Origin: Psychrilyobacter atlanticus DSM 19335
Lineage (GTDB): Bacteria > Fusobacteriota > Fusobacteriia > Fusobacteriales > Fusobacteriaceae
Reading direction: 5' to 3'
DNA: 64,000 bases
Assembly (NCBI RefSeq): GCF_000426625.1
Contig: NZ_KE384548.1
Span: 434,001-498,000, forward strand
The position numbers and the translations under genes are program-made. The first letter of the stretch is position 1, and each line of letters starts with the position of its first letter. Below the pieces are notes generated by a model. The model did no database searches. It was given only the letters and a program-made list of their open reading frames with translations, and was not told the origin of the DNA. Shown piece after piece: positions 5,920 to 43,154 of the stretch.

Positions 5920-5936
5920 AAAATTATGACTTAAGG

Positions 5937-6049
5937 AGTGACCTATAAAATATAGGTCACTTTTTATTATTATTTTTGATTGGTTAATGATATGAAATTA
6001 TAGTTTAAAAAATCTGAGAATAGATGTACTATTAAAATAAGTTAATGAA
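5937..6049 (+). repeat. Terminator-promoter cassette, copy 1
   Basis: Begins with a perfect 11-bp-arm hairpin (AGTGACCTATA, AAA, TATAGGTCACT; 5937-5961) and T run that ends the DUF4234 gene. It continues into a conserved AT-rich block (TTATAGTTTAAAAAATCTGA, then AATAGAT...TATTAAAATAA) that looks like a promoter for the next gene. Copies 2 and 3 are at 28881 and 31758. Confidence 0.75.
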
Positions 6050-6068
6050 TTAAAAGAAAGGAGAATAA

Positions 6069-6263
6069 ATGAATAAAATATTATTAAGTATATTAATAAC
6101 TGGAATTTTTTCAGCTTGTTCAAACTCAGAATTGAAAACAACCGTTTTTTCTCAAAAACAAGAGTATAAATTATTAAAAACTGAAACAAGAGAATTAAAG
6201 ATGGAAATTGAAGAATTGAAAAGAGAAATCCAAAAATTGGCTGATTTTAAGAATGAAAGTTAG
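6069..6263 (+). CDS. Small coiled-coil lipoprotein, paralogue 1
   Basis: 64 residues. A 17-residue signal peptide ends in FSAC, an acceptable fusobacterial lipobox with Cys17. The mature part is a short charged coiled coil (EYKLLKTETRELKMEIEELKREIQKLADF). The paralogue at 29019-29210 is nearly identical through the signal peptide and has the same repeat cassette upstream. It probably sits in an outer-membrane-facing leaflet like other short fusobacterial coiled-coil envelope proteins (compare FadA-like adhesins), but the specific function is unknown. Confidence 0.7.
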   Translation: MNKILLSILITGIFSACSNSELKTTVFSQKQEYKLLKTETRELKMEIEELKREIQKLADFKNES

Positions 6264-23024: not shown

Positions 23025-23987
23025 TTATCTTTCTAAATCATTGTTTATGTTTCTCTTTTTAGGAAAAATAATTTTTCCTTTATATTTTTGTTTTTCTTTC
23101 TCTAATTTGTTAAAATTACCGATCAACCTTTCTGCTATTTTTTCAGAATCACTTGCTGCTTTGTATATCTCATTATTATCTTCTTTCAAAACTTTTATCC
23201 AGGATTTTATATAAGCACTATGATTTTCGATATGATTATTCTTTAGTTCTAAGCCTAATTCATTTTGTGTGAATACAGATGACATCTCAGCTCTAAGCTC
23301 CTCTTTTGCGTATTCTGGGCTACCAAATTTATTTCCTAGCACTCTATCGAGTCTACTACTGTGACCAGTACTATGAGCCATTTCATGAAGCATTGTCCCT
23401 AAAAATTCTTCATGGGACTTAAAATTTTCCTTCAGAGGTAAAACTATATGATCACTAGCTGAGCTATAGTAAGCTCTATCTTGGTTCTTTTCTAAAATTT
23501 GACATTCTGATGATTTTTTTATCCTTTCAATGAATTCTATATTAGTTTTACTAAATTCTAATTTCTTAACTTTGTTAAGAGGAGGGATTCCTTCTATATC
23601 ACTGGCATTGAATACTCTAAAATAATTGGCAATAGGGTTTTCTAATTTAATAAGAATTTCTTCTCCTGTTAACTTATTTTTTTCTTTTTTTGTAAATATC
23701 CATTTTTCTAATGCTATAGATTTTGCGCCTTTTTTTATTTTCCAACCTTTAGTTTGTGCTTGCTTAAAAGTAACCCATCTAGGATCTTCTAGTTCTTTCT
23801 GATCAGCTATTATCATTAATTTTATTTTATTTCCACGACTATATGGTAAATCAGTAGCTCCATTTTTAGGTGTACATTGACTCCTCCACCCTTTTATCCA
23901 ATTTAAGCCATCTTTTTCAAGGTTTTTAATAACTATTTCTGTTAATTTCTTTCTTTCATCATTAATTATTTGGCGAGCTGTCCCCAT
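23025..23987 (-). CDS. ArdC-like antirestriction protein with zincin domain
   Basis: 320 residues, AAGGAGGTG ahead of the ATG. The N-terminal ArdC domain (DUF1738) shows NWIKGWRSQCTPKNGATDLPYSRGN and WVTFKQAQTKGWKIKKGAKS. The C-terminal zincin peptidase-like domain carries HEMAHSTGH, the HExxH zinc motif with a third His. These proteins bind single-stranded DNA and help incoming conjugative DNA survive restriction. Last gene of the mobilisation operon. Confidence 0.85.
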   Translation of the reverse strand: MGTARQIINDERKKLTEIVIKNLEKDGLNWIKGWRSQCTPKNGATDLPYSRGNKIKLMIIADQKELEDPRWVTFKQAQTKGWKIKKGAKSIALEKWIFTKKEKNKLTGEEILIKLENPIANYFRVFNASDIEGIPPLNKVKKLEFSKTNIEFIERIKKSSECQILEKNQDRAYYSSASDHIVLPLKENFKSHEEFLGTMLHEMAHSTGHSSRLDRVLGNKFGSPEYAKEELRAEMSSVFTQNELGLELKNNHIENHSAYIKSWIKVLKEDNNEIYKAASDSEKIAERLIGNFNKLEKEKQKYKGKIIFPKKRNINNDLER

Positions 23988-23988
23988 T

Positions 23989-24135
23989 TTACACCTCCTT
24001 ATTCTTATTAAAAAAATCTTCTAATTCTACTTCATCTCCTGGTGTCTCGCAATCATCTAAAGTTATTCCATCATTCTCTTCAACTACTCCTAATTCTTCT
24101 TCAAATAGCTTTTCCATTGACTTCTCTTTACTCAT
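23989..24135 (-). CDS. Small acidic protein, unknown
   Basis: 48 residues, MSKEKSMEKLFEEELGVVEE followed by an acidic tail. TAGGAGG stands 7-10 nt ahead of the ATG, and the stop codon overlaps the spacer of the ArdC-like gene, so coupling is likely. No family recognised. Acidic small proteins in such modules can be DNA mimics, but this is speculation. Confidence 0.6.
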   Translation of the reverse strand: MSKEKSMEKLFEEELGVVEENDGITLDDCETPGDEVELEDFFNKNKEV

Positions 24136-24147
24136 TTGATTAACCTC

Positions 24148-24642
24148 CTAGTTTTTATGTTTTTTAAATTCAACTATCCCTATCTCATAAAACCTCTGCA
24201 ACTCATAGCTATTACAATTATGAAACTCTACAAAATAGCCACCTAATATTGCTTTATTCTCTTTTAGGAGCCCTGCTTTTTCTATTAGAGCTCCTTTTGA
24301 TATTAGTTTATATGCCCTTTCTTTTTTTTCTTTGGTAGTAAGATGAAATAATGGAGCTTCTCTTATCTCCTCTTTTTTTAACAGTTTTTTCCCTATTGGC
24401 TCTAATATCTTTAACTGAGATCTCTTTTTAAATTCTAAAAAATATCCCAGTAAAATCTCTTTACCTTGAGTAAGAATACCGGCTTTTTCCATTAAAATAC
24501 CGATCATTAAAAGCTTTCTTCCTCGATCTTTTCTTGATTTATATTTATTGTCTTGTAAAATTTTGTTTCTTTTCATAGATAATTTCTTTAATTTATATGA
24601 TATTTGCTCTTCCTTTAAAGAAAGGTTAATGTGAGTTTTCAT
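24148..24642 (-). CDS. TraD-like conjugal transfer accessory protein
   Basis: 164 residues, very basic. It contains the TraD-family pattern twice: RGRKLLMIGILMEKAGILTQ then LLGYFLEF, and RAYKLISKGALIEKAGLLKE then LGGYFVEF. Single-copy versions of this domain accompany MobA/MobL relaxases as relaxosome accessory proteins. The internal duplication is unusual. Confidence 0.7.
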   Translation of the reverse strand: MKTHINLSLKEEQISYKLKKLSMKRNKILQDNKYKSRKDRGRKLLMIGILMEKAGILTQGKEILLGYFLEFKKRSQLKILEPIGKKLLKKEEIREAPLFHLTTKEKKERAYKLISKGALIEKAGLLKENKAILGGYFVEFHNCNSYELQRFYEIGIVEFKKHKN

Positions 24643-24744
24643 AGTTACTCCTATTTATTGCGGATATTTTTATAAAAAATATTCAATCTAGGGGATTTTG
24701 GGGTGTGGGGATATGGGGAATAATTCCCCAGAGTCTCCCATAGG

Positions 24745-27249
24745 TTATCTTTCTAATTCCACTATATCTTTATCTTTTTTATCTCTTAATGAGACTTTAA
24801 TTCCGTAATTGCTATTTTTATTCTCTAATATTTTTTTGAGATCTAGGCCATTATTAGATCTTGAAGGTCCAGGAACATATTTTTTAGTTGTTTTTAAAGT
24901 CTTTGTAAACTCTATTTTTTTATTTGAGTAATTAATCTGCATATCGATGTTTCTTTTAGCATTTTTGAAGCCTTTTCGAACTTTTTTTCTTACTTTACCT
25001 AAGGTTTCATCGCTAAAATCTTTAGTTATATCCTGCTGTTTAGTATTTAGTTTAGTTAATCTAATTTCTAGATCATTTAAACTCTTTTTTAAATTTTTCT
25101 TTTCTAAAACTTTAAACATCCCCAAAGATCTAATCTCTTTTTCTTTCCTAGTAATCTCTATTTTAAGCTTATTTTTATTAGCTTCTATCTTTAAATACTC
25201 TCCTTTAGTTAAAATGTTTAAAGCTAATTTATCTATATTTTTATCACTAGCTTTTAAGTTTAAATTTTCTTTAATAGCTTTCAATTTTTTAATATTGTCA
25301 TATTCCTGATCTATTACTTTAAAGGCAACTTTAGATTTAATATTATTTTCTGACTTATACCATGGGATTTTATCTTCATTTTCTTTAACTTGGAGCTCTT
25401 TTACATGAATTTTTTTACTTATTAAATCTATTTCAAAGTTAACTTTATTAAGCCTATTTAATTGCCAGTTCTTATTATCTAAATTATATGAATTCTCTTT
25501 TTCTTTCTTTATTGGATCTGCTGTTGCTTGTTTATTTGATTTTTCAAAACTGTTTGAAATAATAGAGTGTTCTAGATAGTTTTTCTCATCTTTTAATACG
25601 TTATATTGAGCTTTATAATCTATTAGATCAGTAACTATCCGTTCGTCTAGTAACTCTTGTAGTGGTGGTTTTAAGCTGCTTAAATATCCTTTTAATATGT
25701 CTTCTTCTTTATATAAATCTTTAATCTCTAAAGACTTGTTAGAGGTTAATCTATCAGATTCTTTATTAATTAATTGAGAGATGTTAGGATCTTTTAATTG
25801 ACTATGAAACAGCTTCATTTCATCTCTTAATTTGTCTTGATCTTTCTTTTCTTTATCAGTTTTAAATAAATAATTTTGATACATATTTAAAGCACTAAAT
25901 TTGTTTCCAGAGATATTGTCTACAGCTTCTGTATAGATCATATCTGTATCGTTTAATTGCTTATTTAAAGTCTCTTTATATAGATTTATTTCTTCCAATC
26001 TATTTTGCACTGTAAAATAATCACTAGTATCAATAGTGATTTTGTTGTTATATGTATTTAGATCCATCTCCTCTATTTTTTCTTTAGGATGTAGTTCTTT
26101 TAAATCGGATTTTGAGACATTATATTTTTCATCTAATATACTCAGACATTTCTCTAATTTTATTTCATAAGCATCTTTAATTTGTATATATTTTGCTTTA
26201 TATTTATCACTAATTTTTAAATCATTTTTTAGATAATCTAAATTATTTATTGTTTGGGTTAATTCAGATTTCAATTCCAGATCTGTAGGTTTTTTTCTTA
26301 TATCTTTTCTTAAGGTTCGTGCCCTGTTAACCATCTTATAGTAAGCTCCATTACTACAAAAATTAAGTGCAGTTTTATCTAATTTATCTTCTTGGAGCTT
26401 AGTTTTAGTTTTATTATATTCTTCAATTAACTCACTTTTTTCCATTTGATTTATATCACTTTTTTTCTTATAATTTTCAAGCTTTTTTAGCTTGATCAAC
26501 TTATTTTCTTCATGAATTTTTAAAGATTTTTTCTCCCATTTGTTTAATGTGTCTTCTGCCTTTTGTAATATTTTTCCCGGGATATCAATAGGATCTCTTA
26601 ATAACAAATTGGCTTTATCAATATCTCCTTCTGCAAGTGCTTGATTCATTTGTTTTTCTAAACTTAAATGACTAACTCTTTCATCTAAACCTGCTTTTTC
26701 CAAATAACTATTTGTTATGTCAGCAAAGAGTTTTCTGTCTTTAAGTAACTTCTCTTTTTTCTGCCAAGTTCTATCTTTTTTAGCACCTCCTTTTTCTGGA
26801 CTTTTAGTGTTTGCACGTTTAAAAAAAATCTCTTTTTCTCTTTCTATACCATCAAATTTCCTTTCGCAAAACATCAAATGGACATGAACATTTCCCTCTC
26901 CTCGATTATTAGTTTTATTATGAATGGCGTAGGTATATGGATAATCTTTTCCTATTATTTTTTTTACAAATTCATCAACAATTTGCTTATTTTCTTCTAG
27001 AGCTAATTCATTAGGAAGTGAAATTTCATATTCTTTATATGGTCTTCTATTTACTTCATAAACATCCGCTGCATCCCAAAATTCTTTAGGATCTTTTTCT
27101 CCAAAACTAGGCATGTTTCCAGACTCTTTATATACTAATTCCTCCTTCTTTGTTCCCTTGGAATATTTCCCTTCTCTCAAAATATATTCGGCATGAGGTA
27201 ATCCATGGCCAACTGATCCATTTTTAGCTTTTAATCTATAGATTGCCAT
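24745..27249 (-). CDS. MobA/MobL-family relaxase
   Basis: 834 residues, GGAGG ahead of the ATG. The N-terminal relaxase domain has YRLKAKNGS, AEYILREGKY and the metal-binding NVHVHLMF (His122, His124), with His110 upstream. Residue Tyr4 or Tyr22 could be the strand-cleaving tyrosine. The remaining about 600 residues are a long, lysine/glutamate-rich coiled-coil region of unknown role. It nicks DNA at oriT to begin mobilisation. Downstream TraD-like and ArdC-like genes form one operon. Confidence 0.85.
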   Translation of the reverse strand: MAIYRLKAKNGSVGHGLPHAEYILREGKYSKGTKKEELVYKESGNMPSFGEKDPKEFWDAADVYEVNRRPYKEYEISLPNELALEENKQIVDEFVKKIIGKDYPYTYAIHNKTNNRGEGNVHVHLMFCERKFDGIEREKEIFFKRANTKSPEKGGAKKDRTWQKKEKLLKDRKLFADITNSYLEKAGLDERVSHLSLEKQMNQALAEGDIDKANLLLRDPIDIPGKILQKAEDTLNKWEKKSLKIHEENKLIKLKKLENYKKKSDINQMEKSELIEEYNKTKTKLQEDKLDKTALNFCSNGAYYKMVNRARTLRKDIRKKPTDLELKSELTQTINNLDYLKNDLKISDKYKAKYIQIKDAYEIKLEKCLSILDEKYNVSKSDLKELHPKEKIEEMDLNTYNNKITIDTSDYFTVQNRLEEINLYKETLNKQLNDTDMIYTEAVDNISGNKFSALNMYQNYLFKTDKEKKDQDKLRDEMKLFHSQLKDPNISQLINKESDRLTSNKSLEIKDLYKEEDILKGYLSSLKPPLQELLDERIVTDLIDYKAQYNVLKDEKNYLEHSIISNSFEKSNKQATADPIKKEKENSYNLDNKNWQLNRLNKVNFEIDLISKKIHVKELQVKENEDKIPWYKSENNIKSKVAFKVIDQEYDNIKKLKAIKENLNLKASDKNIDKLALNILTKGEYLKIEANKNKLKIEITRKEKEIRSLGMFKVLEKKNLKKSLNDLEIRLTKLNTKQQDITKDFSDETLGKVRKKVRKGFKNAKRNIDMQINYSNKKIEFTKTLKTTKKYVPGPSRSNNGLDLKKILENKNSNYGIKVSLRDKKDKDIVELER

Positions 27250-27733: not shown

Positions 27734-27844
27734 TTATTTTAATTCTAATTCTAATTTTTTAAATGTTGCCAATTTTGGTATTAAGAAATCAGAAGAACCC
27801 CAATGTATTGAGCAATTTAATTCTAAATCATTTTCTAATTTAAT
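27734..27844 (-). pseudogene. 36-codon gene remnant
   Basis: An open frame lacking a start codon and ribosome-binding site, reading ENDLELNCSIHWGSSDFLIP then KLATFKKLELELK. The composition looks like the end of a real protein, but the family is not recognised. Probably debris at the border of the mobile module. Confidence 0.3.
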
Positions 27845-27849
27845 TTAAT

Positions 27850-27966
27850 TTTTTAATTATATCATAAATCCTAAAAAATAATAATTCCAAGAGTGAGTTT
27901 TAATTTTATTTTGATCTGCTATAATTAGTTTTAATTTTCTAATGATTACGATTTTAATATTAGCGG
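27850..27966 (+). repeat. Upstream element shared with the ompA gene (copy 1)
   Basis: About 110 bp that match 33030-33170 in order: TTAATTATA-CATAAA, AGTTTTAATTTT, CTG-TATAATT and TTTCTAATG--TAC-ATTTTAAT. It contains a TATAAT box at 27920-27925 and lies ahead of the aquaporin gene. Confidence 0.6.
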
Positions 27967-28073
27967 AATCATAAAGAAAAAAAGAAATTATCTGAAAAAG
28001 ATAATGATTTTAAATGAGTTACAAAATATACAAATTTTTAACTCAAATTATTTTACGGAGGAATATTATTAAG

Positions 28074-28769
28074 ATGAAAAGAAAAATGGTAGCAGAATTT
28101 ATTGGAACGTTTTGGTTAGTGTTAGGGGGATGCGGAAGTGCAGTTTTAGCTGCAAATATCCCTGGAGTAGGAATCGGATTTGCAGGAGTAGCATTAGCAT
28201 TTGGTTTAACAGTGGTTACTATGGCATTTGCACTAGGACATATTTCAGGATGTCATCTCAATCCAGCAGTATCTATTGGTTTATGTGTAGGAGGGAGATT
28301 TGAAAAAAAAGAACTTATGCCTTATATTATATCTCAAGTTTTAGGTGGGATTGCAGGGGCTGGAATACTATATATTATTGCTAACGGTTTTACTGGATTT
28401 GATGCAACTCTGAGTGGATTCGCTTCAAATGGATTTGGAACTCATTCTCCTCTTGGATTTAATATGATGGCAGGTTTTGTAACAGAGGTTGTTATGACAA
28501 TGATGTTTTTAATTATTATAATGGGATCTACAGACGAAAGAGCACCAAAAGGATTTGCACCTATTGCAATTGGATTAGGGTTGACTCTTATTCATTTAAT
28601 TAGTATCCCTGTAACTAATACTTCTGTAAATCCTGCTAGGAGTACAGCAGTAGCTATTTATCAAGGTGGCTGGGCATTAAAACAATTATGGCTATTTTGG
28701 TTAGCACCAGTTATAGGAGCAATATTAGGAGCTTATATATATAGATATATAGGCGCTAAAAAAGATTAA
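28074..28769 (+). CDS. aqpZ: Aquaporin Z-type water channel
   Basis: 231 residues from ATG 28074. Six membrane helices with the two pore motifs HLNPAVS (first half) and SVNPARS (second half), and [20 protein letters not shown] at the start, typical of AqpZ rather than of glycerol facilitators. GGAGG lies 12 nt before this ATG but only 6 nt before an in-frame ATT at 28068; either could be used. It sits in the inner membrane and equilibrates water during osmotic change. Single-gene unit with a shared upstream element. Confidence 0.9.
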
Positions 28770-28880
28770 TAAAGGTGAATTTCTAGAATTATTTTATCAA
28801 AATATAAAGGTATGAAGATTGATGATTTGAGAAGAAGAAACCTAATCATTAAAAGATCTTAAAAATATCTATTTTTAGAG

Positions 28881-28995
28881 AGTGGCCTATAAAATATAGG
28901 CCACTCTTTTATTAATTTTAGGTTGGTTAATAATATCAAATTATAGTTTAAAAAATCTTAGGATTAGATCTGTTATTAAAAATAAATTAATAATC
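28881..28995 (+). repeat. Terminator-promoter cassette, copy 2
   Basis: Perfect hairpin AGTGGCCTATA-AAA-TATAGGCCACT (28881-28905) with a T run, then the conserved block TTATAGTTTAAAAAATCT and GTTATTAAAAATAAATTAAT. Compensating base changes relative to copy 1 (A-T pair to G-C pair) keep the stem paired. It precedes the second small coiled-coil lipoprotein. Confidence 0.75.
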
Positions 28996-29018
28996 TGAGT
29001 TATAAAAAGGGGAATGAA

Positions 29019-29210
29019 ATGAATAAAATACTATTAGGCATATTAATAACTGGAATTTTTTCAGCTTGCTCAAATTCAGAATTGAAAGCAACAGTTTTTA
29101 CTCAAGGAGAAGAGTATAAATTATTAGAAAATGAAACAGAAGAATTAAAGATACAAATAGAAGAATTAAAAATAAGAACTGAAAAATTGATGAAATTCAC
29201 AGATGAATAA
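29019..29210 (+). CDS. Small coiled-coil lipoprotein, paralogue 2
   Basis: 63 residues with the same signal peptide as the 6069 protein (MNKILLGILITGIFSAC) and a similar charged coiled coil (EYKLLENETEELKIQIEELKIRTEKLMKF). First gene of a three-gene envelope operon with the basic secreted protein and the MORN-L,D-transpeptidase lipoprotein. It may be a small lipoprotein linking peptidoglycan and outer membrane; not proven. Confidence 0.7.
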   Translation: MNKILLGILITGIFSACSNSELKATVFTQGEEYKLLENETEELKIQIEELKIRTEKLMKFTDE

Positions 29211-29228
29211 AAATAGGAGGGATTAGAT

Positions 29229-29513
29229 ATGAAAAAAGGATTATTAGTAATTTTAATAGCCATATTAGGTGTAACAGCTACAGCAAATGATACTATACAA
29301 AATGTAATAAAGGTAAAACGAAAAGTAAGAAAAGTCAAAAATTATAAAGTGTTGGACACCAAAAAAACAAAAAAATTGAAACGAAAAGTGAAAAAAACAA
29401 AAAATAAAGTGGATGATTTAAAAGATCTTGATTTATCATTATCAGACAAAAATTTAAATACAGTCGATAACTTACTAGATGCTATGGAGAAGAAAAAAGA
29501 TAAGGAAGATTAA
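29229..29513 (+). CDS. Small lysine-rich secreted protein
   Basis: 94 residues with a signal peptide (MKKGLLVILIAILGVTATAND) and a very basic repeat-like mature part (KRKVRKVKNYKVLDTKKTKK, LKRKVKKTKNKVDDL). AGGAGGG precedes the ATG. Many lysines could act as binding or cross-linking sites on the cell wall next to the L,D-transpeptidase encoded directly downstream. Family not recognised. Confidence 0.65.
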   Translation: MKKGLLVILIAILGVTATANDTIQNVIKVKRKVRKVKNYKVLDTKKTKKLKRKVKKTKNKVDDLKDLDLSLSDKNLNTVDNLLDAMEKKKDKED

Positions 29514-29535
29514 AATAAAAAAAGGAGAGTCGAGT

Positions 29536-31413
29536 GTGAAGAAGAAGTTATTTTTATTCATAGTAATGTTGAACTTTATATCGTGTGCTAGGATGTCACC
29601 AGAGGAAAGGTATCAAAGTTTAATAGTTAGTAAAGAAAGTGGGAAATTGAAAGTAGTTGAAGAACATTTGGTTTACAAAAGATCTAAGAAAAATTATGTA
29701 GGTAGATATGTTGTCAATTATGATAATGGTAAGGTTAAAAGTAATGCTTATTATTTGGAGGGGAAAAAAGAAGGAAAAGAAGAAGAATTTTATGAAAATG
29801 GAAAAATGAAAAGTGAAAGAGATTTCATAAATGGAGAAAAGGAAGGGGAAGAGATTACCTACTTTTTAAACGGTGATATAAAGAGTAAAACAAATTATAC
29901 TGCAAATAATAAAAATGGTAAAGAAATAATATTTAGCAAGGGCAAGGAGTCTTATATTATTACAAATTATCTATTAGGTAAAAAGAAAGGAAGTGAAAAG
30001 GAGTATAAAAAAGGGGTTCTGATAAGAGAAACAGAATTTATAAACTCTCTAAAAAATGGTAAAGAAATTTTTTACAAAAATGGAAATAAAATAGAAAAAA
30101 GAAATTATAAATCTGGAAAGTTACTTTCATATGAAAAGGTAGAATATTTAAATGATAATAAGAAAATAAGTTATTTTAAGGGGAATCAACTGGTAACTAT
30201 AGAAATATATGAAAAATCCAGATTGATAAAAAAAATTCCATATAAATATAATATTAAAAACGGAAAAGGATATGAATTTAAAGGGAGCTATCCCTATGAA
30301 ATCATATACTCAAATGGAGATATTTTAGAGAAAAAAGAGTTATTAAAAGAAGCTAATTACAATGAAAACATAAAGTTTTCTGGGGCACTTCCGGAAAGAA
30401 AATATGTTCTTATAACAAGTAATAAGGCTATCCCAAAGAAAGACGCATACAAAACTAGTGAACGTTTAAAAGAAAAGGTATTCTGGGGAGAGAAATATAC
30501 CTATCTTGGTGAGACAAAAAAATTTTATAAAATTAGTTGTTATGGGAAAACTGCTTATATAACTAAAAAATACTCTATTTTAAGAAGATTTGATTTTAAT
30601 AAGATGGTTAGTAAATTAAAAGAATTAAACAAATTTATAGAGACTTCACCTAAAAAATCTGACATAAGGATTATTAACCATTATATCAATCCTACATCAA
30701 AGAAAAATGACCAAGGAGAAAGGGATAGTTATGGAAGTAGAGGTGAACAGGCAGCAATAGCTTATTATATAGAAAATAAGGTAGAAAAATTTCGTTATAT
30801 ACATGATAGACAATACATTTTAATTACCGGAAAAGATGAAGAAAAAGGGACAATTTCTTTTAAACTTCCAGGAGATAATAAGGTTTATAAAACGCTAAAA
30901 AACGAGGTAACAAAAAAAAATTATGGGGATCCGATAAAGAAAGCAATAATCATAGATAAGAAAAACCAAAATCAGGGAGTCTTTGAAAAGGTAGATGGCA
31001 TCTGGGAACTGGTTTCATATTCCTATATAAACTCTGGTAGAGATAATGGAGAGGACAGTTATAAAACCCCTTCAGGAGAGTATTCTATAGCCTATGGAGT
31101 TCCTTTTATTCTATTTCTTTCAAAAGAGGATGATGGCAATGACATCAAAGCAAATTTTGGTATACGATTTAGTGGAGGAGGGTATATTCATACTATTCCA
31201 TATGCAAAGAAACAAGACAGCGAATTAAAAGTGGAATTAAAAACTATAATTGCAGAAGGAGAAAAAAAACTAGGAATATACCCTACAACACATAAGTGTG
31301 TTAGGAATCCACAAGATCATGGGAAGTTTCTTTATGAGTGGCTGGGAGCTAAAAAAATCAGAAATGGGAGGTATAGGATACCTGAAGAAAATAGTATAGT
31401 AATATCGTATTAA
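29536..31413 (+). CDS. MORN-repeat, SH3 and L,D-transpeptidase lipoprotein
   Basis: 625 residues from GTG 29536 (AAAGGAG ahead). Signal peptide with lipobox ISC (Cys17). Residues about 60-240 are YwqK-type MORN repeats (EEFYENGKMKSERDFINGEK). About 285-350 fits a bacterial SH3 domain (PKKDAYKTSERLKEKVFWGE). The C-terminal third has the L,D-transpeptidase (YkuD) features: GGYIHTIP supplies the His and THKCVRN the catalytic Cys588 and Arg. The usual SHGCVRM is altered to THKCVRN. It should act on peptidoglycan in the periplasm, cross-linking stems or attaching proteins. The MORN fusion is unusual. Confidence 0.75.
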   Translation: MKKKLFLFIVMLNFISCARMSPEERYQSLIVSKESGKLKVVEEHLVYKRSKKNYVGRYVVNYDNGKVKSNAYYLEGKKEGKEEEFYENGKMKSERDFINGEKEGEEITYFLNGDIKSKTNYTANNKNGKEIIFSKGKESYIITNYLLGKKKGSEKEYKKGVLIRETEFINSLKNGKEIFYKNGNKIEKRNYKSGKLLSYEKVEYLNDNKKISYFKGNQLVTIEIYEKSRLIKKIPYKYNIKNGKGYEFKGSYPYEIIYSNGDILEKKELLKEANYNENIKFSGALPERKYVLITSNKAIPKKDAYKTSERLKEKVFWGEKYTYLGETKKFYKISCYGKTAYITKKYSILRRFDFNKMVSKLKELNKFIETSPKKSDIRIINHYINPTSKKNDQGERDSYGSRGEQAAIAYYIENKVEKFRYIHDRQYILITGKDEEKGTISFKLPGDNKVYKTLKNEVTKKNYGDPIKKAIIIDKKNQNQGVFEKVDGIWELVSYSYINSGRDNGEDSYKTPSGEYSIAYGVPFILFLSKEDDGNDIKANFGIRFSGGGYIHTIPYAKKQDSELKVELKTIIAEGEKKLGIYPTTHKCVRNPQDHGKFLYEWLGAKKIRNGRYRIPEENSIVISY

Positions 31414-31600: not shown

Positions 31601-31756
31601 TTATAGCAGTTTTAAAAAATGGAAATTCATAATCCAAAAAAATGAAAATAAGCTCCCGTGAGAGTCTGTGTTATTTGAGACTACTATTTCAAAAGGACCT
31701 ACCAAACTATCCCATCCAAGGCCTAATCCTACTCCAGAAGTAAAAATATTATTAGA
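31601..31756 (-). pseudogene. C-terminal remnant of an outer-membrane beta-barrel protein
   Basis: An open frame without a start: SNNIFTSGVGLGLGWDSLVG then PFEIVVSNNTDSHGSLFSFFW. The G-x-GLGWDSLVGPF pattern is that of the last strands of Omp85/BamA-like barrels and of patatin-type (type Vd) autotransporters such as FplA. The upstream end is cut exactly where repeat cassette copy 3 begins. Confidence 0.5.
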
Positions 31757-31757
31757 A

Positions 31758-31876
31758 AGTGGTCTATAAAATATAGATCACTTTTTTATTAAATCTGATA
31801 GATTAATTAGTAATATTAAATTCATAGTTTAAAAAATCTGAGAATAGATATATTATTAAAATAAATTAATAATATG
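31758..31876 (+). repeat. Terminator-promoter cassette, copy 3
   Basis: Hairpin AGTGGTCTATA-AAA-TATAGATCACT (one G-U pair), T run, then CATAGTTTAAAAAATCTGAG, AATAGATATATTATTAAAAT and AAATTAATAAT. It abuts the beta-barrel remnant on one side and the Crp/Fnr-type gene on the other. Confidence 0.75.
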
Positions 31877-31923
31877 ATTTGAAGGGAATAATGATAAAAA
31901 AAATTAATTGAAAGGAGAAAACT

Positions 31924-32869: not shown

Positions 32870-33029
32870 AAATATCTCCCTTCATAAATTATCAAAATAT
32901 ACACTAAATGATCTTTATTTGTATATTTATAGATTATAATAAAATTTATTTCAAATATAACGACTTGTAGTGATTGATTTTTTTCTTAAAATATGCAACG
33001 TAATTTTTATTAATTAGAAACTTGAAATT

Positions 33030-33170
33030 CTTAATTATACCATAAAATTGAAAAAAAATAAATTTCAATGGTTAGTTTTAATTTTTTATTAGTCTGTTAT
33101 AATTGTTTTCTAATAGAAAATTAATTTATTTTAATTTTTCTAATGGGTACAATTTTAATGTTAAAACAAT
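33030..33170 (+). repeat. Upstream element shared with the aquaporin gene (copy 2)
   Basis: Matches 27850-27966 with an extra stretch in the middle. It has AGTTTTAATTTTT, GTCTGTTATAATTG with TATAAT at 33098-33103, and TTTCTAATGGGTACAATTTT. It is the likely promoter of the OmpA-family gene. Confidence 0.6.
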
Positions 33171-33184
33171 TATAAGGAGGGAAA

Positions 33185-41276: not shown

Positions 41277-43154
41277 ATGAATATAAAATATAAAGTAGTT
41301 TTAATCTCTGGACTTTTATTTATTATGGGTTGTAAATCTGTAGAGAATAAAGTTATAGAGGGGGCAATTTACAGTAAGGATAAAAAAGTTTATAGTGTTT
41401 TTGATAATAAACCTGTAAATGGAGTATTAGAAAAGGAAGGATACTATGGGAAGAGAGAATATTCTACTTATAAAAAAGGAACTCTTTATAATTTAAAAAA
41501 AATAAGTAAAGAAAATGAGCTTCTTTATGAGGTATCTTTTGATGGAATGGGACTTTTTAATGGAAAAACATTTGAGGAGAAAGGGAAGAGCAGTGAGTAC
41601 TCCCATGGAGTTTTAGACGGAGAAGTTATCTATGAAGATTATAGAGGTAATAAGATTATAGAAAGATATGCTGATGGTGTTCTAAACGGGGTACAAGAAA
41701 AAAAAGAAGGTAAAAAATTATTTTTTAATCAAGGTTTGAGAACTACAAAAGATATAGAATCACCAACTAAAAAGCAATCAAAAGTTATTGTATGGGGAGA
41801 GATCCCTAAAGAAAACTTTACTGGAGAATTATACGGAAAGCCTAAAACAGGTATTATAAATAATAATTATGCAGCTATGCAAATAGAAAATTATAAGAAT
41901 GGGGTTTTACTATCTAGGAAGTACTATGATAAACAAGGAAAAAAGATGTATGAATTTCACTTTGTGGATGGAAATATAAAAAAAATAATAAAAAAAATAG
42001 AATATACCAAAGGGATTTTAAGGGAATTAAAAAATTATAATTCAGATGGAGTCTTAAATGGAAAATATATTTTAGGGAGTTATTATTCTACTAACACTGA
42101 AGTTAAAAATTATAAAAATGGAATCCCGCATGGAGAAGTAGAGATATTAATTGAAAAAGATGGGAAATTAGATAAAAAAATAGGCTTTTATGATAAAGGA
42201 ATCTATACTGGATATAAAAATACACAATACTATAAGGATGGAATTGAAATTGATAAAGAATTAGCTAATACAGTTTCTTCTAACTTTATAATAACTAATA
42301 TAAAAGATATCAAGAATAAAGAAAGTTTTAGTGGTTATACAAACCAAATAATTAATAATAACAATGCTGAAGATGGGAATATTTATTACTATGAAAACGG
42401 ATTTCTTAAAGAAGAATATAAATATGAAAATAATTCTTTAATTCAATCAAAATATTATCTAAAGAATGGAAAATACATTCAAAAAACTTATAAAGATGGA
42501 ATTATTCAAAAAATTTCAAATTATAATGCTGATGGTATTGAAGATGGAGCCTTTACAGCGTATGAACATGATAATAGCAAAACTGTTGGTTATATAGTAA
42601 ATGGAGTAATAGACGGAAGAAGTGTTCATTATCATGGAACAAAAGTTTATTATGTCGATGTCTATTCTAAAGGGAAAGAATATCAAAGAACTATTTACTA
42701 TGATTACGAGAAAAAACAAATTTTTCAGACACAAAAAGGTGTCAATACAGGCAGAGGATGGATCATAATAGGGATGGATAAAACCTATTATGAAGATGGA
42801 AACTTGAAAAAGGTAGTTAATTATGGAGATGGATTATCTTCAGAGAAAAAAGTAGAAGTTACTAAATTTTATTCTAATGGGAAGATAAAATCAAAAGGTA
42901 CAATGGATTATTGTTTATATAAAAATATTGGTAAAAAAACTATATTCTATGAGAATGGAAAGAAAAAAATAGAAGAAAATTACAATGATAGAAACTATAA
43001 TACTGGAACAAAAAAATATTATTTTCCCAGTGGAAAGATAGAAAAAATAGAAAGTTATAATGATAGAGGTTATAAAGATGGGACATTTAAAACTTACAAT
43101 AAAGATGGGAAATTAATAGAAGAGTTACATTATAAAAATGGATATAAAAAATAA
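41277..43154 (+). CDS. MORN-repeat (YwqK-type) lipoprotein
   Basis: 625 residues. Signal peptide with lipobox IMGC (Cys19). The whole mature protein is a string of YwqK/MORN repeats of the type YYENGFLKEEYKYENN, FYSNGKIKSKGT and YFPSGKIEKIESYNDRG. AAAAGGAG precedes the ATG. Unlike the lipoprotein at 29536 it has no transpeptidase domain. YwqK repeats occur in surface and contact-dependent antitoxin proteins; here the lipid anchor suggests an envelope scaffold. Role unknown. Confidence 0.8.
   Translation: MNIKYKVVLISGLLFIMGCKSVENKVIEGAIYSKDKKVYSVFDNKPVNGVLEKEGYYGKREYSTYKKGTLYNLKKISKENELLYEVSFDGMGLFNGKTFEEKGKSSEYSHGVLDGEVIYEDYRGNKIIERYADGVLNGVQEKKEGKKLFFNQGLRTTKDIESPTKKQSKVIVWGEIPKENFTGELYGKPKTGIINNNYAAMQIENYKNGVLLSRKYYDKQGKKMYEFHFVDGNIKKIIKKIEYTKGILRELKNYNSDGVLNGKYILGSYYSTNTEVKNYKNGIPHGEVEILIEKDGKLDKKIGFYDKGIYTGYKNTQYYKDGIEIDKELANTVSSNFIITNIKDIKNKESFSGYTNQIINNNNAEDGNIYYYENGFLKEEYKYENNSLIQSKYYLKNGKYIQKTYKDGIIQKISNYNADGIEDGAFTAYEHDNSKTVGYIVNGVIDGRSVHYHGTKVYYVDVYSKGKEYQRTIYYDYEKKQIFQTQKGVNTGRGWIIIGMDKTYYEDGNLKKVVNYGDGLSSEKKVEVTKFYSNGKIKSKGTMDYCLYKNIGKKTIFYENGKKKIEENYNDRNYNTGTKKYYFPSGKIEKIESYNDRGYKDGTFKTYNKDGKLIEELHYKNGYKK

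What the first reader, a model, noticed from the sequence alone, without database searches (positions are those of the whole stretch)
29019..31413. Envelope operon with a MORN-SH3-L,D-transpeptidase lipoprotein and a lysine-rich partner
A lipoprotein fusing YwqK MORN repeats to SH3 and L,D-transpeptidase domains is unusual. Just upstream is a secreted protein with dense lysines and a small coiled-coil lipoprotein. L,D-transpeptidases attach proteins to peptidoglycan through lysine side chains in other bacteria (Braun lipoprotein). The trio could be a wall-anchoring system specific to this lineage.
Basis: partly seen in the sequence, partly recalled or inferred. Interest (0 to 1): 0.6.

Follow-up and report, generated by a model that had tools for sequence, protein, structure and literature searches.

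The report
MORN-extended fusobacterial cell-wall L,D-transpeptidase
A marine Fusobacteria relative (Psychrilyobacter) carries an odd, fast-changing copy of a cell-wall-linking enzyme that nearly all Fusobacteria have; here it has gained a string of MORN repeats and sits next to a small membrane-anchored protein and a unique lysine-rich protein, but there is no sign yet that these form a dedicated protein-anchoring machine.

Summary
Three genes lie at 29019-31413: a 63-aa coiled-coil lipoprotein (A), a 94-aa exported Lys-rich protein (B) and a 625-aa lipoprotein (C) built of about nine MORN_2 repeats, a bacterial SH3 domain and a YkuD L,D-transpeptidase (LDT) domain. The transpeptidase fold is well supported (LdtMt2 tops the PDB fold search). 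The 'altered' THKCVRN site is not decay: C belongs to an SH3-LDT family found in 85 of 98 fusobacterial genomes, where Lys (63 of 71) or Met precedes the catalytic Cys instead of the canonical Gly. C keeps all 19 near-invariant residues although its tree branch is long; it is a diverged paralog sister to the other Psychrilyobacter LDTs. The MORN fusion was seen nowhere else. The trio is not a conserved unit: B has no convincing homolog, and A has a second copy 23 kb away, under a copy of the same promoter, without B or C. Yet relatives of A, or Pal-like OmpA lipoproteins, sit beside this LDT in seven other genera, which favours a job at the outer-membrane/wall interface. Neither A nor B ends in the Lys that Lpp-type anchoring uses. 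Best reading: an active envelope LDT with a swapped-in MORN module; protein anchoring remains possible but unproven.

The parts
29019..29210 (+). Gene A: 63-aa coiled-coil lipoprotein (lipobox FSAC); Lpp-like in size, no C-terminal Lys
   Evidence: 71% identical to a second copy at 6069-6263; related to the small lipoproteins upstream of a Pal-like OmpA lipoprotein on the main chromosome (L130)
29229..29513 (+). Gene B: 94-aa exported Lys-rich protein, mature part 22 Lys of 74; predicted three helices
   Evidence: (no convincing homolog in 98 genomes)
29536..31413 (+). Gene C: 625-aa lipoprotein MORN_2 x about 9 + SH3 + YkuD L,D-transpeptidase; GTG start
29698..30333 (+). MORN_2 repeat region of gene C (residues about 55-266), nine units of 23-24 aa
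   Evidence: modelled with low confidence only
30400..30588 (+). SH3-type domain of gene C (residues about 289-351)
   Evidence: 2kt8, TM 0.68 by target
30940..31410 (+). YkuD catalytic domain (residues 469-625); His552 at 31189-31191, Cys588 at 31297-31299, Arg590 at 31303-31305
28868..29018 (+). Terminator plus promoter-like repeat upstream of gene A (copy 1)
   Evidence: copies at 31747-31880 (before the Crp-like gene) and 5936-6069 (before the second gene A)

Best explanation
Gene C is an active, lipid-anchored L,D-transpeptidase: a diverged Psychrilyobacter paralog of the pan-fusobacterial SH3-YkuD enzyme that has acquired a MORN_2 module between its lipid anchor and its wall-binding/catalytic part. 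Proposed working: the lipidated N-terminus sits in the outer membrane (sorting inferred), the MORN repeats act as a spacer or docking surface (inferred), the SH3 domain binds peptidoglycan (inferred from the domain type), and Cys588 with His552 takes up a tetrapeptide stem as an acyl-enzyme and passes it to an amine (chemistry inferred from YkuD homology and kept residues). The acceptor is most likely another stem peptide (3-3 cross-link); a protein amine is the alternative. Gene A is a separately duplicated Lpp-like coiled-coil lipoprotein of the outer-membrane/wall interface; gene B is a species-specific cationic periplasmic protein, probably transcribed with them.
For: YkuD above Pfam's cut-off; Foldseek top hits LdtMt2 and other LDTs at probability 1.00; C588 and H552 align with the Cys of 4xxt (SHGCIR) and the His of 4xvo (GGVYVHSAP); family in 85 of 98 fusobacterial genomes with K/M before Cys in 69 of 71; all 19 near-invariant positions kept in C against 58 of 108 majority positions; sister to the other Psychrilyobacter LDTs with 100/98 support, branch 1.15; other members carry other N-terminal parts: coiled-coil lipoprotein, Asp-rich region, PG_binding_1; LDT gene next to a Pal-like OmpA lipoprotein in g4, g5, g7, g12 and next to a coiled-coil small lipoprotein in g9, g10, g14.
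Against: No activity data for any fusobacterial LDT were found. The MORN part is modelled poorly. Lipoprotein sorting in Fusobacteria was not tested. Cross-linking versus anchoring cannot be read from sequence: PMC10434034 reports that LDTs with these functions cannot be assigned to distinct clusters. The long branch could also mean relaxed constraint or changed specificity.
Confidence: 0.6

Rival explanations
1. Wall-anchoring system: C attaches gene B (and/or A) to peptidoglycan through Lys side chains, B being its dedicated substrate.
For: Same-strand adjacency with short gaps and own ribosome-binding sites; B is exported and has 22 Lys in 74 residues; LDT family next to small coiled-coil lipoproteins in g9, g10, g14; internal-Lys attachment is reported for Coxiella LimB (cited in PMC12274547).
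Against: B ends KKKDKED and A ends KFTDE; Lpp-type attachment needs a C-terminal Lys (PMC12274547). B has no homolog beside any other member. A has a second copy without LDT.
Confidence: 0.17
2. MORN surface/adhesion lipoprotein in which the SH3-LDT part mainly binds the wall; catalysis minor or lost.
For: MORN_2 lipoproteins are many in this genome and in Fusobacterium, reported near OmpA and autotransporter genes (PMC10434195); here an OmpA protein (33185) and an autotransporter (34812) lie just downstream.
Against: All 19 near-invariant positions, catalytic Cys/His/Arg included, are kept despite strong divergence.
Confidence: 0.13
3. Hydrolase of the DpaA kind: C cleaves rather than forms wall links.
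For: YkuD proteins include the Lpp-detaching DpaA (PMC8263019 and PMC10653827, abstracts); Foldseek also lists DpaA, 8ikr, more weakly.
Against: LdtMt2-type enzymes rank far above DpaA in the fold search (1.5e-5 against 4.2e-2); the aligned known relatives are LDT-type proteins. Weak evidence, since function does not follow clusters in this family.
Confidence: 0.08

Closest known systems
YkuD-type L,D-transpeptidases (Pfam PF03734), e.g. LdtMt2
   Same: Fold, catalytic Cys and upstream His, TPxG and CxR positions
   Different: Gly before the catalytic Cys is Lys here; SH3 domain and MORN repeats at the N-terminal side in place of the domains of LdtMt2
Pan-fusobacterial SH3-LDT family (F. nucleatum Q8RFF3 and Q8RF13 are annotated as LDTs in PMC10326533; whether they are members was not tested)
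   Same: SH3-YkuD core, [ST][HR]KC[VI]R signature, lipoprotein or signal-peptide start
   Different: MORN_2 module, long branch, different neighbours
Braun lipoprotein Lpp with its LDTs (LdtA-C)
   Same: Small coiled-coil lipoprotein near an envelope LDT
   Different: Gene A has no C-terminal Lys and no shown link to the wall
MORN_2 / YwqK-type lipoproteins of Fusobacteria
   Same: Repeat units, lipoprotein start
   Different: The others seen here are not fused to an enzyme

Membership tests
YkuD L,D-transpeptidase | Significant match to the catalytic-domain profile | tested here: met
   24.2 bits, cut-off 23.4; 34 of 34 relatives match
YkuD L,D-transpeptidase | LDT fold | tested here: met
   Model pLDDT mostly 85-98 over the catalytic domain; Foldseek top hits LDTs, probability 1.00
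YkuD L,D-transpeptidase | Catalytic Cys and upstream His | tested here: met
   C588 and H552 invariant in 71 of 71; aligned with the Cys of 4xxt and the His of 4xvo
YkuD L,D-transpeptidase | Canonical Gly before Cys ([ST]HGC) | tested here: not met
   Lys in 63, Met in 6, Gly in 2 of 71. The canonical motif comes from general knowledge and from the aligned 4xxt and 4lpq. It is a difference of the whole subfamily, so the claim is limited to membership of the YkuD fold family, not of the canonical HGC group
YkuD L,D-transpeptidase | Transpeptidase activity | not testable with these tools
   needs enzyme assay
Lpp-type covalent wall anchor (for A or B) | C-terminal Lys | tested here: not met
   A ends KFTDE, B ends KKKDKED
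Lpp-type covalent wall anchor (for A or B) | Small coiled-coil outer-membrane lipoprotein | tested here: inconclusive
   A has lipobox and heptad-like sequence; outer-membrane location not tested; B has no lipobox
MORN_2 repeat proteins | Tandem 22-24-aa repeats matching PF07661 | tested here: met
   E 5e-5, 23.5 bits, below the whole-protein cut-off of 29.6; 25.8 bits for one unit; nine units laid out by eye

The most novel reading that the evidence does not exclude
A dedicated protein-to-peptidoglycan anchoring cassette in which a MORN-LDT lipoprotein couples an exported polylysine-like protein (B) through internal Lys residues to the wall, giving Fusobacteria a route for tethering envelope proteins that differs from Lpp.
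Probability: 0.1. Interest if true: 0.75.

Novelty: new variant of a known kind. Interest (0 to 1): 0.42.

Why it matters
Nearly every fusobacterial genome searched has this SH3-LDT family, in several genera beside a Pal-like or coiled-coil lipoprotein, yet the open-access papers searched hold only annotation of fusobacterial LDTs. It marks a testable set of candidates for how Fusobacteria (F. nucleatum has lanthionine in place of DAP, PMC11602996 abstract) cross-link their wall or tie the outer membrane to it. The MORN fusion is a natural experiment for what MORN_2 modules, common and unexplained in Fusobacteria, do in the envelope.

Tried and rejected
Decayed active site: rejected, the KC motif is family-wide and all near-invariant residues are kept. 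Trio as a conserved operon: rejected, no other genome has it. Gene B homologs: hits at 1e-4 to 1e-5 are partial, 28-32% identical and mostly inside longer frames; judged low-complexity Lys-rich matches, sequences not inspected further. MORN-LDT fusion elsewhere: none among the family members read from 98 phylum genomes or the 39 loci of the genome-contig scan; metagenomes could not be searched. Plasmid collection: five weak LDT matches, none over 30% identical. Papers joining MORN and D-transpeptidase: none.

Full report
What is there. The window lies on a 1.15-Mb contig (C3) of a 3.5-Mb, three-contig genome. Its genus group is Psychrilyobacter: contig G058:C201 has the same length and hit as a record titled Psychrilyobacter sp. 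SW_4_5 (inference from matching lengths). Genes A (29019-29210), B (29229-29513) and C (29536-31413) run in one direction with ribosome-binding sites. An aquaporin gene with its own terminator lies upstream (28014-28769; terminator 28877-28909), a Crp-like regulator downstream (31924), then an OmpA protein, a YscW-domain lipoprotein and a 1924-aa autotransporter.

Gene C. Pfam gives MORN_2 (residues 78-99 best) and YkuD (469-604, above cut-off). Nine 23-24-aa MORN units can be laid out over residues 55-266. AlphaFold2 on a 34-row alignment models the C-terminal 350 residues mostly well and the MORN part poorly. Foldseek puts LdtMt2 and other LDTs first at probability 1.00, and bacterial SH3 domains (2kt8, 2krs) lower. 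Pfam calls YkuD in all 34 members, SH3_3 in 24, MORN_2 only in the window protein and PG_binding_1 in two members, which by their sequences are the Clostridia- and Bacillota-labelled ones.

The catalytic motif. In 71 family proteins Cys588, Arg590, His552, Tyr550, Gly548 and Arg544 never vary; the residue before Cys is Lys in 63, Met in 6, Gly in 2; the one before that is His in 37, Arg in 33. In a profile alignment the Cys falls on the Cys of SHGCIR in 4xxt, and the His on that of GGVYVHSAP in 4xvo. Bacteroidota members read SHMC[VI]RN; Clostridia and Bacillota members read SHKCVRN, SRKCVRN or SHMCVRN. So THKCVRN is a normal form of this subfamily. The window protein keeps 19 of 19 positions that are at least 97% conserved in the others, while matching only 58 of 108 majority positions, the lowest of the six tested.

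Distribution and descent. The family was found in 85 of 98 fusobacterial genomes (72 of 79 good ones) (a minority of those matches may be MORN-only), and by a genome-contig scan also in a few Clostridia, Bacillota and Bacteroidota records. The window genome has two YkuD genes: C and a MORN-free paralog at C3:577 kb. In a tree C is sister to the other Psychrilyobacter LDTs (100/98) on a long branch of 1.15; its place should be read with that caution. Another long-branch copy, in G048 (L097, 0.81), has a free-standing MORN_2 lipoprotein 43 bases downstream. Two cases are too few for a claim but suggest that extra, diverged LDT copies can become linked with MORN.

Neighbourhoods. In genera g4, g5, g7 and g12 the LDT gene is usually followed, in the same direction, by a Pal-like OmpA lipoprotein of 177-213 aa (gaps from -46 to 151 bases); in g9 and g14 an 80-aa coiled-coil lipoprotein and a Pal-like OmpA lipoprotein lie 0.5-0.8 kb downstream; in g10 an 82-aa coiled-coil lipoprotein follows at 26 bases. 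Gene A is 47-51% identical to small lipoproteins that precede a Pal-like OmpA lipoprotein in Psychrilyobacter genomes, and more weakly similar to those of g9, g10 and g14. About 70 LDT genes were inspected, not every hit.

Is the trio a unit? A second gene A (6069-6263, 71% identical) stands 23 kb upstream behind the same terminator-promoter repeat, without B or C; a third copy of the repeat precedes the Crp-like gene. The repeat was found in no other genome of the phylum. Gene B has no convincing homolog. Hence the three genes look like a local assembly in this species rather than a conserved system.

Mechanism. Shown: domain content, family membership, kept catalytic residues, neighbourhoods. 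Inferred: lipid anchoring, outer-membrane sorting, wall binding by SH3, L,D-transpeptidation. Cross-linking is preferred over protein anchoring because neither A nor B ends in Lys, which is required for Lpp-type attachment in the Dickeya OutB/Lpp study (PMC12274547), whereas an internal Lys is mentioned there only for Coxiella LimB. PMC10434034 notes that LDTs of different function cannot be assigned to distinct clusters, so sequence cannot settle this. MORN_2 proteins of F. nucleatum are numerous in outer-membrane vesicles and their function is unproven (PMC10434195), which fits an outer-membrane place for C without proving it.

Verdict.

Noticed in passing
window 5936-6069, 28868-29019, 31747-31880: Three copies (81-82% identical) of a 130-150-bp terminator-plus-promoter-like repeat on one replicon, in front of two gene A copies and a Crp-like gene; not found in other fusobacterial genomes. 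Possible shared regulation.
   Followed up: partly
window 27844-27977 and 33022-33178: Upstream regions of the aquaporin and OmpA genes are about 75% alike (direct repeats D1, D4).
   Followed up: no
window 41277-43154: A second MORN_2 lipoprotein of 625 aa without any enzyme domain, downstream of a 1924-aa autotransporter.
   Followed up: partly
window 23025-27249: ArdC-type antirestriction gene and MobA/MobL relaxase gene on the minus strand: a mobilisation module beside the cassette.
   Followed up: no
L130:2310-3370, L131, L132: Tandem near-identical small coiled-coil lipoprotein genes ending in a Pal-like OmpA lipoprotein with the same N-terminus, in Psychrilyobacter genomes.
   Followed up: partly
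L149 (G058:C201): Two tandem LDT genes of 495-513 aa; the second seems to carry a Glu/Lys-rich insertion inside the catalytic region.
   Followed up: no
L097:3187-4965 (minus strand): MORN_2 lipoprotein gene 43 bases downstream of a diverged SH3-LDT gene in another fusobacterial genus.
   Followed up: partly
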